Source: Candidatus Hydrogenedentota bacterium
GTDB taxonomy: Bacteria > Hydrogenedentota > Hydrogenedentia > Hydrogenedentales > JAEUWI01
Length of the DNA: 64,000 nt
Assembly (NCBI GenBank): GCA_016182605.1
Contig: JACPGE010000080.1
Span: 1 to 64,000 of the forward strand
Reading direction: 5' to 3'
Shown piece by piece: positions 3,088-12,308 of this stretch. Both the position numbers and the translations under genes were made by a program. Under the pieces are notes generated by a model. It saw only the letters and a program-made list of their open reading frames with translations. It ran no database searches and had not been told where the DNA came from. Each line of letters opens with the position of its first letter. The stretch's first letter is position 1.

Positions 3088-4167
3088 TCAACTGCCCTCA
3101 GGATAGCCCAAGACCTTGATTTCTATTTGACGGCGCTCCGTCCCGGGGTACTTCGTGTCTTCGAGGCGCACGTAGTTCGGCGTGACCCGATCCACCCGGA
3201 ACCGGTCTTGAATCATATCTCCCGCCTTCACCTGCAAATCCTTGTTCTGAAATTCCGGGTTCTTGATGTCAAAGGTGGCGCTATCCCCGCTGATTGCCTT
3301 GAGGGTGAAGGCATAGTACGCCATTTCCGAGCGCACCAGCTTGTCCAGTTCCAGCAACTCGGGACCCGCCTGGTTCCCCACCGCACGGCTCATCAGGCGG
3401 CTCGCCGCATCGTGATCCATTTTCTGGTAGGGATTCTTGGCAAGCAAGCCCTTAATTTCAGCAATGAAGCCTTTCTGGGCCTCTTCCAACAGGGCGGCAT
3501 TCTCTTCGGTCTGATTGTAACCGTAGGCGGTTTGCGTCTCGGTCAAGATGTCGATGAGCGGCGCGCCCTGCTCCATCATGGTCCGTGCCCGGTTCTCATA
3601 GACAAACTCCTCCACTTTGTTCCGGGACTCCAAATACGCGCTCAGCTTGTCCCAACCGTAATCGCCCCCAAGGCCCAGCAAGACCAGCGCGGCAACGATC
3701 CCCCCCAAGCTAAAGAGTCTGCGCAGTATGTCTGGCTGCTCCCCCTGGGGCCTGCGCCTGCCGGAAACGGCACGATCAAACGTCGAAGATGTCAGGCTGC
3801 GGTGGTACTCGTCCAACTCCGGCAGGCCGGGTTCCTCCCGCTGCGCTCCAGAAGAGGTTTTGGCGTCCTTATCCAGCATCTTGCGCAAGAAGCTCTTCCG
3901 CCGCTCCGCCTGAACGCTTTTCTCGTCTTGCGAAACCGAGGCTTCCTCCACCCGGAAACTCTCCAGCGCGTCCGTCACGTTCCCCGAGAGCGTGTAGACC
4001 TTCTGCGGCTGGCCGCCCAAGTCCTTTATGGTGAAATGCGATTCTTCTTTCTTCGGCCGCCCGACGGATTCCCCGCAATACCGGCATTTGGTCGCCCAAA
4101 CGCTGATGGACATGCGGCACGTCGGACAAAGCCGGAATTCTTCACTGTCATCGGGGGTGTTGCTCAA
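3088..4167 (-). CDS. Zinc-ribbon single-pass membrane protein
   Basis: A 359-residue protein. An N-terminal double CxxC zinc ribbon (Cys14, 17, 28, 31; CPTC and CRYC) is followed by a charged linker and one transmembrane helix (about residues 160-185, LGGIVAALVLLGLGG). A long C-terminal domain would lie across the membrane. The last third (about 290-359) is beta-rich and may be a small binding domain. I chose a TTG start at 4167 because GAGAGGG lies ~7 bases upstream and the product begins directly before the zinc ribbon; an ATG at 4257 would add 30 low-complexity residues with no ribosome site. Such zinc-ribbon/TM proteins are common and mostly uncharacterised. Confidence 0.7.
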   Translation of the reverse strand: MSNTPDDSEEFRLCPTCRMSISVWATKCRYCGESVGRPKKEESHFTIKDLGGQPQKVYTLSGNVTDALESFRVEEASVSQDEKSVQAERRKSFLRKMLDKDAKTSSGAQREEPGLPELDEYHRSLTSSTFDRAVSGRRRPQGEQPDILRRLFSLGGIVAALVLLGLGGDYGWDKLSAYLESRNKVEEFVYENRARTMMEQGAPLIDILTETQTAYGYNQTEENAALLEEAQKGFIAEIKGLLAKNPYQKMDHDAASRLMSRAVGNQAGPELLELDKLVRSEMAYYAFTLKAISGDSATFDIKNPEFQNKDLQVKAGDMIQDRFRVDRVTPNYVRLEDTKYPGTERRQIEIKVLGYPEGS

Positions 4168-4428
4168 GAAAAAACCCTCTCGCTTGCACTGGCCTGGCCC
4201 GCGGCGCTCTCCCGCCGGCGATTCCGGCGCCGCCACGTGTTCTACTCCAAGTCCCATCTACTAGGAGAATACACCGAAATGCTTGCACTAAATCAAGAAT
4301 CTTCCCGTCGCCTCGGATTGTGTCATACTTCCTCATAGATGACAAGATCTACGGCAGGGTTCCATTCCGGTCGATTTCGGCCAATTTCTTCGGTATACTT
4401 CCCTCATTCCCGCAAAAAGAGTACACCC

Positions 4429-4509
4429 ATGCCGCCCCAATATTCGCCACTTGCCTCGAGTCTGTCCCCATACGCCGCACTGCGGATACGGGCGATCCTC
4501 GCGTGCTGA
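4429..4509 (+). other. Possible 26-codon leader ORF overlapping the CHAT-like gene start
   Basis: ATG at 4429 opens a 26-codon frame (begins MPPQYSPLASSLSPYAALRI) that ends in TGC TGA at 4504-4509, overlapping the GTG at 4503 proposed for the next gene. Its codon choice resembles coding sequence. Either it is a coupled leader peptide, or the downstream gene really starts here and a one-base indel or frameshift separates the frames. The remaining divergent region (4168-4428) shows no other feature. Confidence 0.3.
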
Positions 4510-5450
4510 ATCCCCGTACCGGTTTGGCGGATCGCCTTCTGGCCCTGGCCGGCTATGCCGGATGCGCCCCCGCCCAGTGGCTTTTCGCCGGGGAAGCCCC
4601 CACCTTCTTCGCCGCCCATCACCGCCGCCTGGCCCTGGCCCTGTGGTTCGTTTTTGCCCTGATCACCCTGATATTTGTGCTGACCGTGCTGGGCCTTTCC
4701 TATACTCTGGTAAATGCCCGCGCCCTCTACGAAGGGCGTCACCTCGAATTCTACCTCTTGGGCTTCACCCGGAAACTCTATATCTGCTGGGCCGTCTGCT
4801 GGGCCTATTGCGTCCTCCTTGCCCTGGCCGGCGCCACCTGGCACCTGCCGCTCTTCTCGTGGCTTGCCGGCCTGCGCATTGTCTGCACCAGCACCGCCGT
4901 TTCCATGTGTTGCGCCGCAATTATGCTTCTCGCCCTCCTCCCTTTCGCTGCGCACTCCGCTCTTATTGCCCGGCAGGACCCCGCTCCGGGAAAGGTCTAT
5001 ATGCTCTACGAGGATCTGGACTTCTTTCCCCGTCCCATATTCACTTTTGGCTTCTACCGCATCGCTCTGGAAGCCACCGCACGATGCGGTCCAGACGCCG
5101 TGGTCGCCCTCAAGCTGACGCCCGAATCCATTCACCGCGCCGTGCGCGAAGCCGAGTTTATCTTTATCGGTTCTCATGGCGCGCGGAGAGGGCTGATGCT
5201 CAAGGACACTTGGTTCCGGCCCGAAGACATCGATCCGGCAACGGTCAATCCCGGATTGCGCTACGTGTATCTCACCGGCTGCGACAGCGGTGTGCAGCGG
5301 GCGGCCTGGGAAAAGGCCCTGGCGCCGGCCCAGGTGGTAACTTTTGAGCGCCTGACCGCCGTGCTCGAGCATGCCTGGTGGCTTTGGTTGCGCGGCCCAG
5401 ACGTCATCCGAACCCTGTATCCGCTCTCAATAGAAGGAGCTTCCCCGTGA
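4503..5450 (+). CDS. Membrane-anchored CHAT/caspase-like domain protein
   Basis: About 315 residues from a GTG start. The N-terminal half has four hydrophobic segments (roughly residues 42-68, 90-112, 114-130, 132-152). The C-terminal half carries FIGSHGARRG (His225) and, 35 residues later, YLTGCDSG (Cys260). This is the spacing and hydrophobic-strand context of the His/Cys dyad in CHAT and caspase-like (clan CD) peptidases. In known CHAT proteins the dyad cleaves a partner protein; activity here is inference. The stop overlaps the GTG of the aldolase gene (GTGA), so translation is coupled. The start is uncertain: a longer frame opens with GTG at 4320 and a different-frame ATG lies at 4429. 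No typical CHAT companions (TPR, WD40) are fused. Confidence 0.6.
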   Translation: MLNPRTGLADRLLALAGYAGCAPAQWLFAGEAPTFFAAHHRRLALALWFVFALITLIFVLTVLGLSYTLVNARALYEGRHLEFYLLGFTRKLYICWAVCWAYCVLLALAGATWHLPLFSWLAGLRIVCTSTAVSMCCAAIMLLALLPFAAHSALIARQDPAPGKVYMLYEDLDFFPRPIFTFGFYRIALEATARCGPDAVVALKLTPESIHRAVREAEFIFIGSHGARRGLMLKDTWFRPEDIDPATVNPGLRYVYLTGCDSGVQRAAWEKALAPAQVVTFERLTAVLEHAWWLWLRGPDVIRTLYPLSIEGASP

Positions 5451-6115
5451 ACGACGAAACGGCCCAACGGGACGCAATTTGCGGCATTGCCGCACGCATG
5501 TATGAGCGCGGCTTGGTCTCCGCGACGGACGGCAACATCTCTGTGCGGCTGGATGCGGAACGCTTTCTTTGCACCCCGAGCGGATCCTGCCTGGGCGCAC
5601 TCCTGCCTGGCGCGCTGGTGGTGGTGGACCCGGAAGGGAGGCTGCTCGAAGGCACCGGCCGCGTAACCTCCGAGTTTCCGTTGCACGCCGCGTGCTACCG
5701 GGAACGGGAGGATATTGCCGCCGTAATCCATGCCCATCCGCCCCGGGCCATCGGTTTTACGCTCGCGGGGATTGGCCTCGATGCCCTGGTGCTTCCCGAG
5801 CTTGTCTTCAGTGGCGGGGGTGTTCCAACGGCGCCCTATGCCACCCCGGGAACGCCAGAGGGTGGCGCCGTTATCGGACCCTGCATTCGCCATTGCGACA
5901 GCCTCATGCTGGATCGGCACGGCTCCGTGACTGTGGGGGGGACACTGATGGAGGCCTTCTACCGGCTGGAGAAGCTCGAGCATGCTGCGGAAAGCCTGTT
6001 CACCGCACATATGCTGGGCACGCCCCGCACGCTGACGGCAGAGGAGGTGGAGCGGATTCTCGCCGCCCGCGCGGCCTACGGGGTCACGGGAAAGCTGTAC
6101 CGGCCGGGATGTTGA
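5447..6115 (+). CDS. Class II aldolase/adducin family protein
   Basis: A 222-residue class II aldolase (FucA/AraD/adducin fold). This zinc-dependent family cleaves sugar phosphates such as fuculose-1-phosphate or epimerises ribulose-5-phosphate. Visible motifs are the phosphate-binding TDGNISVR and TPSG segments (about 27-46), the catalytic Glu in TSEFPLH (Glu76), the zinc pair HAH (His95, His97) and a third zinc His in DRHGSV (about residue 155). The GTG start at 5447 overlaps the preceding stop, with AGAAGGAG just upstream. Substrate cannot be told from sequence. Genes on the other strand end 7 bases away, so this is the last gene of its operon. Confidence 0.88.
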   Translation: MNDETAQRDAICGIAARMYERGLVSATDGNISVRLDAERFLCTPSGSCLGALLPGALVVVDPEGRLLEGTGRVTSEFPLHAACYREREDIAAVIHAHPPRAIGFTLAGIGLDALVLPELVFSGGGVPTAPYATPGTPEGGAVIGPCIRHCDSLMLDRHGSVTVGGTLMEAFYRLEKLEHAAESLFTAHMLGTPRTLTAEEVERILAARAAYGVTGKLYRPGC

Positions 6116-6122
6116 TCGCCGT

Positions 6123-6395
6123 TCATCCCCTGGGGGCCTGAATGGGGGCCGCGCCGTTGCGGAAGAGCCGCCAGACGGCGTAGGAGCCGCCCACGACGAC
6201 GGCGAGGTGAACCAGGACGGCGCTGACGATCCAGAGATCCGGGCTGGTGAAGAGGTAGCGGTAGCACAGGTACATCGGCACCTTGCGGGTGAGCACTTCG
6301 CCGTCCACCGTGCCGGCCACATTGAGAATGGGAATCCACACCGTACCCAGAAAGGCCACCAGCAGGTTCAGGTAAAACTTCGGCTCTTTGGGCAT
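6123..6395 (-). CDS. Small two-helix membrane protein
   Basis: A 90-residue protein with two transmembrane helices (about 7-28, LNLLVAFLGTVWIPILNVAG; and 53-76, LWIVSAVLVHLAVVVGGSYA). A short basic C-terminal tail follows. AGGAAGG sits at the right distance before the ATG at 6395, and the gene starts 22 bases after the ilvE stop, so it is likely co-transcribed with ilvE. No family recognised. Confidence 0.7.
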   Translation of the reverse strand: MPKEPKFYLNLLVAFLGTVWIPILNVAGTVDGEVLTRKVPMYLCYRYLFTSPDLWIVSAVLVHLAVVVGGSYAVWRLFRNGAAPIQAPRG

Positions 6396-6417
6396 GGATT
6401 CCTTCCTGTGGCCGCAT

Positions 6418-7350
6418 TTACCCCAGGGTGGGCGTGCACCAATGGCGGTAGGCGGGCACTTTGCCCTGAACGACCTCAAAGTAGATGTCTTGCAGCTTCC
6501 GCGTGATCTCGCCCGGCTTGCCCGTGCCAATGAGGCGCCGGTCCACCGAGCGCACCGGAGCGACTTGGGCGCCCGTGCCGGAAAAAAAGATCTCGTCGCA
6601 GACATAGAGTTCGGTGCGGGCGATGGGACGCTCGATCACCTCCATGTTCAGGACCTCCCGCGCAAGCTGCATCACGGTATTGCGCGTGATTCCCACCAGA
6701 ATATCCGCATTGGGCGGTGGCGTAATGAGCTTGCCATCCAGGATCATGAAAATATTCATGGCGCTGCCTTCGGCCACCGTGCCGTCTTCCCGCAGGAAAA
6801 TGGCCTCGTGAAAGCCGGATTGCTTGGCTTCGGACGAGGCGAGGGCCGAATTGATGTAGCTGCCCGTTGTCTTTGCGCGCGTCGGTATCGCGTTGTCGCA
6901 CAGGCGCCGCCAAGAGGAAACAGCCACATCCAGGCCGGATTCAATGTCGACATAGTCGCCCAGCTTGATCAGGTAGCAGCACAGCTTGCTCTCGATACCA
7001 CGAACCGCCGGCCCAAGCGAAAGTTCACTCTTGTAACAGAGCGGACGGATATAGACGTCTTCCTTGAAGCCCGATCGCTTCACCAGTTCGATGCAAATCT
7101 GCGCGATCGCCGCGCGATCCTCCGGGATCTCCATGCACAGAATGTTGAAATTGCGCACCAGCCGATCCACGTGCTCCGGGAGCCGGAAGATGTGCACATT
7201 GTCTTCTTCCTTGTTGTAGTACCCGCGGATACCCTCGAAAAGGCCCGTGCCATAGTTGAAGCCATGCGTCATCACGCTGACTTTCGCTTGATCGGCGGGC
7301 ACATAGCCGCCTTCAAAATAGGCTATTGCACCCGGAACCATCTTCGCCAT
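6418..7350 (-). CDS. ilvE: Branched-chain amino-acid aminotransferase
   Basis: A 310-residue class IV, PLP-dependent transaminase that transfers amino groups between Leu/Ile/Val and 2-oxoglutarate. The internal aldimine Lys is Lys160 in IPTRAKTTG, at the same place as in Escherichia coli IlvE. Other family blocks are THGFNYGTGLFEGIR (about 28-42), VAEGSAMNIF, GITRNTVMQLA and DEIFFSGTGAQVAPV. The length matches the family. The ATG at 7350 follows a GGGAG ribosome site; a second Met three codons later is possible. The frame extends much further upstream but would run over the divergent DUF4838 promoter. It heads a two-gene unit with the small membrane protein. Confidence 0.93.
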   Translation of the reverse strand: MAKMVPGAIAYFEGGYVPADQAKVSVMTHGFNYGTGLFEGIRGYYNKEEDNVHIFRLPEHVDRLVRNFNILCMEIPEDRAAIAQICIELVKRSGFKEDVYIRPLCYKSELSLGPAVRGIESKLCCYLIKLGDYVDIESGLDVAVSSWRRLCDNAIPTRAKTTGSYINSALASSEAKQSGFHEAIFLREDGTVAEGSAMNIFMILDGKLITPPPNADILVGITRNTVMQLAREVLNMEVIERPIARTELYVCDEIFFSGTGAQVAPVRSVDRRLIGTGKPGEITRKLQDIYFEVVQGKVPAYRHWCTPTLG

Positions 7351-7545
7351 GTACCGCAATCTCCCAACGCGGGCCGGAGTAGCGCCGCAGGTCTTGAAAC
7401 ACCCTGAGTTTACTGAACACCGTGCCATGCGCACCGGCACACAAACAGCCGCAGCCCTGAGGGGGCGGGTTTTCCCCATAGTATCGCGGTTTCCGGGGGA
7501 TCGTTGCAAATCCACCGCGGGCTTCGGGCCCGCCCCGCGCCTGAA

Positions 7546-7575
7546 TTGACACACGCCCGCCTGCCTCCCTACCAT
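7546..7575 (+). promoter_or_regulatory. Sigma70-type promoter for the DUF4838 gene
   Basis: TTGACA at 7546-7551, an 18-base spacer, and TACCAT at 7570-7575 (4 of 6 matches to TATAAT). It lies 64 bases before the ATG at 7639, which has GGAG nine bases upstream. The rest of the divergent gap 7351-7638 shows nothing further. Confidence 0.5.
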
Positions 7576-7638
7576 GAGGGCGTCCCTATTAAAAACGCTT
7601 CTGCCTATCCCGCAATACCCTTTGGAGTCCGTATAAAC

Positions 7639-11151: not shown

Positions 11152-11532
11152 CTATTCCACTATCCGGCGCGCTGACAGCAGTAACATGACCCAGCCCGCA
11201 ATGAAGGCGACCCCGCCGATCGGGGTGATCATGCCGAATTTGGTGATGCCGGTGATGGCGAGCACGTAGAGGCTGCCACTGAAGATGAGTATGCCAACGC
11301 CCCAGGCCCAGGCAGTGTAGGGGACGAGGGGGGCGTCCCACGCGGCGGCGGGGGCGAGGGCAAGCCCCAGAAGCGCCAGCACGTGATAGAAATGGTAGCG
11401 GACGCCCACCTCGAACACGGTCAGCATTTCGGGCGAGATCCGTTCCTTGAGTCCATGAGCGCCGAAAGCGCCGAGGGCCACAGCCAAAGCGCCCAAGAGA
11501 GCCGCAATTCGGAGGCAGAGTAAGGGGGTCAT
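11152..11532 (-). CDS. DUF423 family membrane protein
   Basis: A 126-residue integral membrane protein with four helices, matching the small DUF423 (YgdD-like) family in length and in the N-terminal LGAFGAHGLKE block. Other blocks are the FEVGVRYHFYHVLALL segment and the C-terminal ITPIGGVAFIAGW. Function is unknown in any organism. The ATG at 11532 is preferred over an in-frame TTG 15 bases upstream because TTGAGG provides a ribosome site at suitable distance. It lies 63 bases downstream of the bacilliredoxin gene on the same strand. Confidence 0.88.
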   Translation of the reverse strand: MTPLLCLRIAALLGALAVALGAFGAHGLKERISPEMLTVFEVGVRYHFYHVLALLGLALAPAAAWDAPLVPYTAWAWGVGILIFSGSLYVLAITGITKFGMITPIGGVAFIAGWVMLLLSARRIVE

Positions 11533-11595
11533 AATGGTGGTCCTCAAAGAAACGGCGGCCCGTGGCCGCCGAGTGAGTATGGTGTTGGGGGAAGG

Positions 11596-12111
11596 TCAGT
11601 TGCCAGCGTAGGGGCTGATGCTCGAACCGCAGGTCTTGACGTGTTCGTTGCCTTCGAAGACCTCGGGCGGCACAGAGGGACCCTGGCGATCGCAAGTCTC
11701 ATTGAAGACGGCGGAGAGGTTGTTGGCGATATCCAAGGCGGTCATGCGCTCGATGTGGCGGCGTTCCAGCACGTGGATGGGACGGCCGTCCTTGAAGAGC
11801 GCAATGCACGGGGAGGACGGGGCAATCTCGCTCATGTAGCTGCGCGCCTGGGCCACGGCTTCCTGATCCATGCCGGCGAAGACAGTGATCAGTTCGTCCG
11901 GGATTTTCTCATTTTGCAGTGCCAGGCCCACGCCCGGCCGGGCATTGCCCGCAGCGCACCCGCACACCGAATTCACGACGCACAGCACCGTGCCCGATTC
12001 CTTGGAGAGCACGGCATCGACATCGGCTTGGGTCTTGAGGGGCTTGACGCCAATATTCGCCAGCTCTTCCCACATGGGACGCACCTGATCCGGATCATAA
12101 AGCGGGGGCAT
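11596..12111 (-). CDS. BrxA/BrxB family bacilliredoxin
   Basis: A 171-residue thioredoxin-fold protein of the bacilliredoxin (YphP/YqiW, DUF1094) family, which removes bacillithiol or similar low-molecular-weight thiols from oxidised proteins. The signature CGC motif is present (Cys50-Gly-Cys52 in VNSVCGCAAG), followed by the family segment FAGMDQEAVAQARSYM and HVLERRHIE. The start at 12111 has AGGAG nine bases upstream; an earlier ATG at 12129 lacks one. Its presence suggests bacillithiol or an analogous thiol in this organism, which is inference. Confidence 0.9.
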   Translation of the reverse strand: MPPLYDPDQVRPMWEELANIGVKPLKTQADVDAVLSKESGTVLCVVNSVCGCAAGNARPGVGLALQNEKIPDELITVFAGMDQEAVAQARSYMSEIAPSSPCIALFKDGRPIHVLERRHIERMTALDIANNLSAVFNETCDRQGPSVPPEVFEGNEHVKTCGSSISPYAGN

Positions 12112-12308
12112 GTATTCGTTCTCCTGCATGAGCGGCGCACGTCACGTGCACGCATGTGGAATCAGTGGGGGGCATTGTCCCTACCCTTACAGACAACAGC
12201 ACAGGACGGAGGAATTATTCCATCCGGATAACCCGTAAACGCCGGAAGGATAGCAGATCGGCGCAATTTGTGCAAAACAGGAACGGACACTTGGAAGGGG
12301 GAGGGACA

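What the first reader, a model, noticed from the sequence alone, without database searches (positions are those of the whole stretch)
4429..5450. Four-helix membrane protein with a CHAT/caspase-like His-Cys pair, coupled to an aldolase
GSHG (His225) and TGCDSG (Cys260) sit in the order and context of clan CD peptidases, but the domain is short and fused to a four-helix membrane part, not to TPR/WD40 partners. The aldolase gene is translationally coupled (GTGA). A membrane CHAT-like protein paired with a sugar enzyme is not a combination I know.
Basis: partly seen in the sequence, partly recalled or inferred. Interest (0 to 1): 0.6.

Follow-up and report, generated by a model that had tools for sequence, protein, structure and literature searches.

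The report
Membrane-anchored caspase-like (CHAT-like) protein family
This gene encodes a small, previously unnamed membrane protein, found only in one bacterial phylum so far, that joins a Tic20-like membrane piece to a miniature caspase-like domain with an invariant His-Cys pair; the sugar enzyme next door is a local accident of gene order.

Summary
The ORF is real and the His225/Cys260 pair is real, but the gene starts at GTG 4503; ATG 4429 lies in another frame. Thirty-five of 35 complete relatives keep both residues, across 11 families of one order (Hydrogenedentota). No intact two-domain relative turned up in about 590 genomes outside it. Gene tree and family labels agree, so the gene is mostly inherited vertically. 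Profile-profile comparison places residues 158-315 with CHAT (94%) and less with gingipain-type C25 (73%), against 2% for flavodoxin and at most 4% for other controls; the His and Cys align with the CHAT catalytic pair. The membrane part matches DUF4870/HOTT, the Tic20-like family (96%; controls below 0.4%). All single-sequence Pfam scores stay below the curated cut-offs. The domain model (pLDDT 78) has the caspase strand/His/hairpin/strand/Cys order, but Foldseek ranks flavodoxin-like folds first, so fold proof is incomplete. The aldolase is same-strand and coupled in only 5 of 36 loci, convergent in 9 and absent in most others: not a functional pair. Best reading: a membrane-anchored minimal caspase-like peptidase, probably acting on membrane or envelope proteins. 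Substrate, activity and membrane side are untested. New domain architecture of known parts.

The parts
4503..5450 (+). CDS of the membrane CHAT-like protein, 315 aa, GTG start (window ORF also open from GTG 4320)
   Evidence: N-terminus fits homologues from 4503; ATG 4429 is out of frame
4524..4586 (+). weak, broken first membrane helix (residues 8-28), re-entrant-like as in HOTT/Tic20
   Evidence: model helices 8-19 and 23-28, hydropathy peak 1.2 only, HOTT architecture in PMC11628618
4587..4634 (+). charged loop FxxHHxRQA (residues 29-44), with invariant His40
   Evidence: alignment A1; aligns with the SPFxDxHGKEA loop of DUF4870
4629..4715 (+). membrane helix 2 (residues 43-71)
   Evidence: hydropathy and model
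4776..4832 (+). membrane helix 3 (residues 92-110)
   Evidence: hydropathy and model
4881..4958 (+). membrane helix 4 (residues 127-152), beyond the DUF4870 unit
   Evidence: hydropathy and model
4980..5423 (+). minimal CHAT-like / caspase-like domain (residues 160-307)
   Evidence: hhalign CHAT 94.3%, C25 72.8%, flavodoxin 2.1%; domain model pLDDT 78.5
5175..5177 (+). His225, presumed catalytic histidine, followed by invariant Gly226
5280..5282 (+). Cys260, presumed catalytic cysteine (YLTGCDSG)
5370..5372 (+). invariant His290 in the LEHxWWLW C-terminal helix, role unknown
5447..6115 (+). class II aldolase gene, start overlaps the stop codon (GTGA); positional neighbour, not conserved
   Evidence: PF00596 2.1e-45; orientation survey
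3088..4173 (-). divergent neighbour: zinc-ribbon membrane protein, present phylum-wide with or without this gene

Best explanation
A single-copy, vertically inherited membrane protein of Hydrogenedentota. A Tic20-like DUF4870/HOTT unit plus one extra helix anchors a minimal caspase-like (CHAT-like) cysteine peptidase domain. Shown here: the two-domain architecture by profile comparison, the invariant His225-Gly226 and Cys260, the order-limited distribution, and the absence of a conserved operon partner. Inferred: Cys260 is the nucleophile and His225 the base; the domain makes limited cuts in membrane or envelope proteins that the HOTT-like part brings near it; loop charges lean towards the peptidase domain lying outside the cytoplasm (about 60%).
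For: 36 of 68 genomes of the order carry it, with H225/C260 in 35 of 35 complete copies. hhalign of residues 158-315: CHAT 94.3% (E 1e-7), C25 72.8%, C14 17%, flavodoxin 2.1%; 15 unrelated families at most 1.4%, 8 column shuffles at most 4.2%. With the His/Cys motifs masked CHAT keeps 27.8% and C25 20.3%. Membrane part against DUF4870: 96.0%, controls below 0.4%. Independent Pfam hits land on the same regions: CHAT 8.7e-4, C25 1.6e-3, DUF4870 6.8e-4 as best values among members. The C-terminal model gives the caspase order of elements, with HG just after the third core strand, then a hairpin, and Cys just after the fourth. The gene tree follows family labels, 8 changes against 7 possible and 16.8 shuffled. 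Mean K+R 3.9 and 3.2 in loops 1 and 3, net charge +0.9 in loop 2 and -1.8 after helix 4.
Against: No Pfam match reaches its curated cut-off (CHAT best 19.3 of 24 bits). Most of the CHAT signal sits in the two motifs, and a comparison with only four out-of-phylum CHAT domains falls to 8%. Foldseek with the domain model ranks flavodoxin-like domains first (E 7e-4, TM 0.46-0.50) and shows no caspase in its top 50; the model rests on three sequences. No activity, substrate or topology is demonstrated. In MmsF, earlier work placed the charged loop on the luminal side (PMC11628618), which would reverse the topology lean.
Confidence: 0.6

Rival explanations
1. A caspase-fold pseudo-enzyme: the domain kept the fold and the His/Cys pair for binding or redox sensing, not for proteolysis.
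For: The residues after the Cys vary in a few members (CDQ in G003, CNA in G027, CHA in G034, CRG in G012); the bare domain lacks the rest of CHAT.
Against: Both His225 and Cys260 are invariant in 35 of 35, together with the Gly after His that PMC4357240 calls structurally conserved in all clan CD families.
Confidence: 0.17
2. The C-terminal domain is a flavodoxin-like or other alpha/beta domain unrelated to peptidases; the His-Cys pair is a coincidence of motif.
For: Foldseek top hits are flavodiiron flavodoxin domains, E 7e-4, TM 0.46-0.50.
Against: Sequence profile against flavodoxin is 2.1% while CHAT is 94.3%; the caspase fold contains the same parallel 2-1-3-4-5 core as flavodoxin (caspase order in PMC4357240, flavodoxin order from general knowledge), so the structural hit does not discriminate; a hairpin follows the His strand in the model.
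Confidence: 0.1
3. A defence or cell-death effector of the CHAT type, triggered by infection.
For: CHAT domains occur in such systems (PMC10028731, PMC10907252).
Against: No PADLOC match in 29 members; mostly vertical inheritance; one copy per genome; housekeeping neighbours such as surE, dapB and rpsT (my recognition from sequence) and no sensor partner next to it.
Confidence: 0.08
4. A functional pair with the class II aldolase in sugar metabolism.
For: Start-stop overlap in all five loci of G000, G001, G004, G005 and G006.
Against: Aldolase is on the opposite strand in 9 loci, including G003 of the same family, and absent in 18 with enough sequence.
Confidence: 0.04

Closest known systems
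CHAT domain (PF12770), e.g. TPR-CHAT/Csx29
   Same: His-Gly and Cys motifs in the same order with a similar segment between them (H..GLLL..G..PeD...L..VYLxxC); hhalign 94.3%.
   Different: About 150 residues only, without the upstream part of CHAT; fused to a membrane unit, not to TPR repeats; below Pfam's cut-off.
Peptidase C25 (gingipain type, PF01364)
   Same: His and Cys region aligns over 69 columns, 72.8%; weak single-sequence hits in 7 of 29 members; one member found by the family search itself at 3.8e-4.
   Different: C25 frames here are long, mostly 600-1800 aa; this is a short polytopic membrane protein; below cut-off.
DUF4870/HOTT and Tic20 superfamily (MamF-like proteins, PMC11628618)
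   Same: Broken first helix, charged HxRQA-type loop, two further helices, G...P motif; hhalign 96%.
   Different: An extra fourth helix and a C-terminal caspase-like domain; acidic loop residues of HOTT replaced by basic ones; below Pfam's cut-off.
Orthocaspases / Peptidase C14 (PF00656)
   Same: Same dyad order and general fold class.
   Different: Only 17% profile probability; C14 is not among the Pfam families matched by the 29 members.

Membership tests
Clan CD cysteine peptidases | His/Cys dyad, His before Cys in sequence | tested here: met
   H225 and C260 in 35 of 35; definition from PMC4357240
Clan CD cysteine peptidases | Glycine adjacent to the catalytic His | tested here: met
   G226 invariant
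[quoted passage not shown]
   Predicted strands end at residues 222 and 258, just before H225 and C260 (numbering shifted by 155); three-sequence model, no coordinates to measure
Clan CD cysteine peptidases | Six-stranded sheet (five parallel, one antiparallel) | tested here: inconclusive
   Five core strands plus a hairpin predicted; a sixth strand is not seen; Foldseek prefers flavodoxin-like folds
Clan CD cysteine peptidases | Peptide bond cleavage by the Cys | not testable with these tools
   needs an assay
CHAT (PF12770) | Score over the curated cut-off | tested here: not met
   best 19.3 of 24 bits in a relative, none for the window protein
CHAT (PF12770) | Profile-level homology over the His-Cys region | tested here: met
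   94.3% against controls at most 4.2%
Peptidase C25 (PF01364) | Score over the curated cut-off | tested here: not met
   best 18.2 of 23 bits, 21 of 23
Peptidase C14 (PF00656) | Any family match | tested here: not met
   not among the families matched by the 29 members
DUF4870/HOTT (PF09685) | Score over the curated cut-off | tested here: not met
   best 20.1 of 25 bits, 22.7
DUF4870/HOTT (PF09685) | Re-entrant-like helix, charged loop, two further helices | tested here: met
   model (low confidence) and hydropathy; profile match 96.0%; definition from PMC11628618
Known defence systems (PADLOC) | Match to any defence protein model | tested here: not met
   0 of 29 members

The most novel reading that the evidence does not exclude
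A Tic20/HOTT-type module, a family linked to inserting or targeting proteins into membranes, is physically joined to a caspase-like peptidase facing the periplasm, so that newly inserted membrane proteins are captured and cut by the same molecule: an insertion-coupled, caspase-type processing or quality-control protease.
Probability: 0.12. Interest if true: 0.75.

Novelty: new variant of a known kind. Interest (0 to 1): 0.42.

Why it matters
Both halves belong to superfamilies with an open question: bacterial HOTT proteins are almost uncharacterised Tic20 relatives, and bacterial caspase-like proteases usually sit in large multi-domain or secreted proteins. A 315-residue protein that fuses the two, keeps its catalytic pair across 11 families and is inherited like a housekeeping gene is a compact system for asking what HOTT modules handle and what ordinary, non-defence work caspase-like domains do. 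It also suggests a natural lower size limit for a CHAT-type domain.

Tried and rejected
Direct Pfam, NCBIfam and PADLOC matches for the window protein: nothing useful. PDB by sequence: the profile gives only claudin-like membrane noise. Foldseek with the full-length model: low confidence, a mix of receptors, dehydrogenases and caspase-1 at E 0.08, not used as proof. Foldseek against viral proteins: nothing informative. Functional coupling to the aldolase: rejected. Functional link to the divergent zinc-ribbon gene: that gene is phylum-wide, 63 of 68 genomes including family f5 which lacks this one, so it is only a positional neighbour. Fusions outside the phylum: the hits in about 590 other genomes cover only the membrane part or a short stretch of the His-Cys region; those inspected are stand-alone HOTT-type frames without an HG...C pair.

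Full report
Observation. The window holds an open frame 4320-5450 on the + strand. The class II aldolase gene begins at GTG 5447 and overlaps the stop codon (PF00596 at 2.1e-45).

A real family. Searching 100 relatives found it in 36 genomes. A profile of 29 members, searched in 386 genomes, found the same 36, all in the window's own order, and outside the order only short fragments; two named hits are Candidatus Hydrogenedentota. It is absent from every sampled genome of family f5. Two other phyla, 195 and 80 genomes, gave only N-terminal membrane-part matches, and the frames I read there are stand-alone HOTT-type proteins without an HG...C pair. The gene tree follows the family labels closely, 8 label changes where 7 is the least possible and 16.8 the shuffled mean. 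G014 has the two halves in different frames, joined at a run of C, and G043 is cut at a contig end.

The C-terminal domain. H225, G226 and C260 are invariant; DSG after the Cys nearly so. All 35 copies that reach this part have both residues. The window protein has no useful Pfam match, but relatives give sub-threshold hits to CHAT (best 8.7e-4), Peptidase_C25 (1.6e-3) and, for the membrane part, DUF4870 (6.8e-4), each in the expected place. I built alignments of CHAT, C14, C25, DUF4870 and flavodoxin from the same genomes and compared them by hhalign. The C-terminal domain gave CHAT 94.3% (E 1e-7), C25 72.8%, C14 17.2%, flavodoxin 2.1%; 15 unrelated neighbour families gave at most 1.4% and eight column shuffles at most 4.2%. 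The His and Cys columns align with those of CHAT. Masking both motifs leaves 27.8% for CHAT and 20.3% for C25, so the motifs carry most but not all of the signal. An alignment of only four out-of-phylum CHAT domains gave 8.1%, which is a weakness.

Structure. The element order, with HG just after the third strand, a hairpin next, and Cys just after the fourth, is that of the clan CD core described in PMC4357240. Foldseek ranks flavodiiron flavodoxin domains first (E 7e-4, TM 0.46-0.50) and no caspase in its first 50. Flavodoxin and caspase share the parallel 2-1-3-4-5 core (the flavodoxin order is from general knowledge), so this supports the core but does not decide between them. The His-Cys distance could not be measured.

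The membrane part. Residues 1-157 match DUF4870 at 96.0%, all controls below 0.4%, with the FxxHHxRQA loop on the SPFxDxHGKEA loop and the GSxxPxP motif on its C-terminal G...YP motif. PMC11628618 names this family HOTT, shows it to be homologous to Tic20, describes a re-entrant-like helix, a charged loop and two more helices, and finds that the HOTT members MamF/MmsF/MmxF are needed to target proteins to the magnetosome membrane. Our protein adds a fourth helix. Loops 1 and 3 are the positive ones and the stretch after helix 4 is acidic, which leans towards the CHAT-like domain outside the cytoplasm; this is not settled, and earlier work placed the charged loop of MmsF on the luminal side.

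Neighbourhood. The aldolase is downstream on the same strand in five loci of family f1 (G000, G001, G004, G005, G006), with overlapping stop and start. It is on the opposite strand in nine loci, including G003 of the same family, usually next to ilvE. Of the other 22 loci, 18 have enough downstream sequence and no aldolase. In f11 most copies sit instead near genes I recognise as surE and dapB, in f7 next to rpsT. The divergent zinc-ribbon gene is conserved next to it in 12 loci of five families but is present in 63 of 68 genomes whether or not this gene is. No operon partner is conserved.

How it most likely works. Shown by computation: two-domain architecture, invariant dyad, mostly vertical inheritance, no conserved partner. 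Inferred: Cys260 attacks, His225 acts as base, the HOTT-like part holds the domain at the membrane and perhaps presents membrane proteins to it, and the product is a limited cut with a processing or regulatory purpose. I put the peptidase reading at about 0.6.

Known or new. Each half belongs to a known superfamily; neither reaches its curated Pfam cut-off, so formal membership in CHAT, C25 or DUF4870 is not claimed. I found no description of the combination in the held literature. It is a new domain architecture of known parts.

Noticed in passing
L091 (G014:C344), about 6750-7600: The relative in G014 has its membrane half and its CHAT-like half in different frames, joined at a long run of C; either an assembly error or a phase-variable tract exactly between the two domains.
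   Followed up: partly
68 genomes of the order: Stand-alone DUF4870/HOTT genes and the HOTT-CHAT fusion tend to exclude each other: 7 genomes have both, 29 fusion only, 18 stand-alone only, 14 neither (Fisher p 0.0024), but this is confounded by family (f5 against f11).
   Followed up: partly
window 3088-4173 (-): Unnamed zinc-ribbon membrane protein (CPTCRMSISVWATKCRYCGE), found in 63 of 68 genomes of the order, with no Pfam family over its cut-off: a nearly phylum-wide protein without a name.
   Followed up: partly
window 5447-7340: Aldolase, small membrane protein and ilvE appear as one opposite-strand group in f7, f10 and some f11; in part of f1 the aldolase alone is inverted, which created the GTGA overlap.
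   Followed up: yes
G000:C101, C108, C120, C123: The same genome has other clan CD-type proteins: one full CHAT (500-aa frame), two Peptidase_C14 and one clear Peptidase_C25.
   Followed up: no
window 11596-12129 (-): Looks like a bacilliredoxin (VCGCAAGNARP motif), next to a DUF423-like membrane protein at 11152-11547; recognised by eye only.
   Followed up: no
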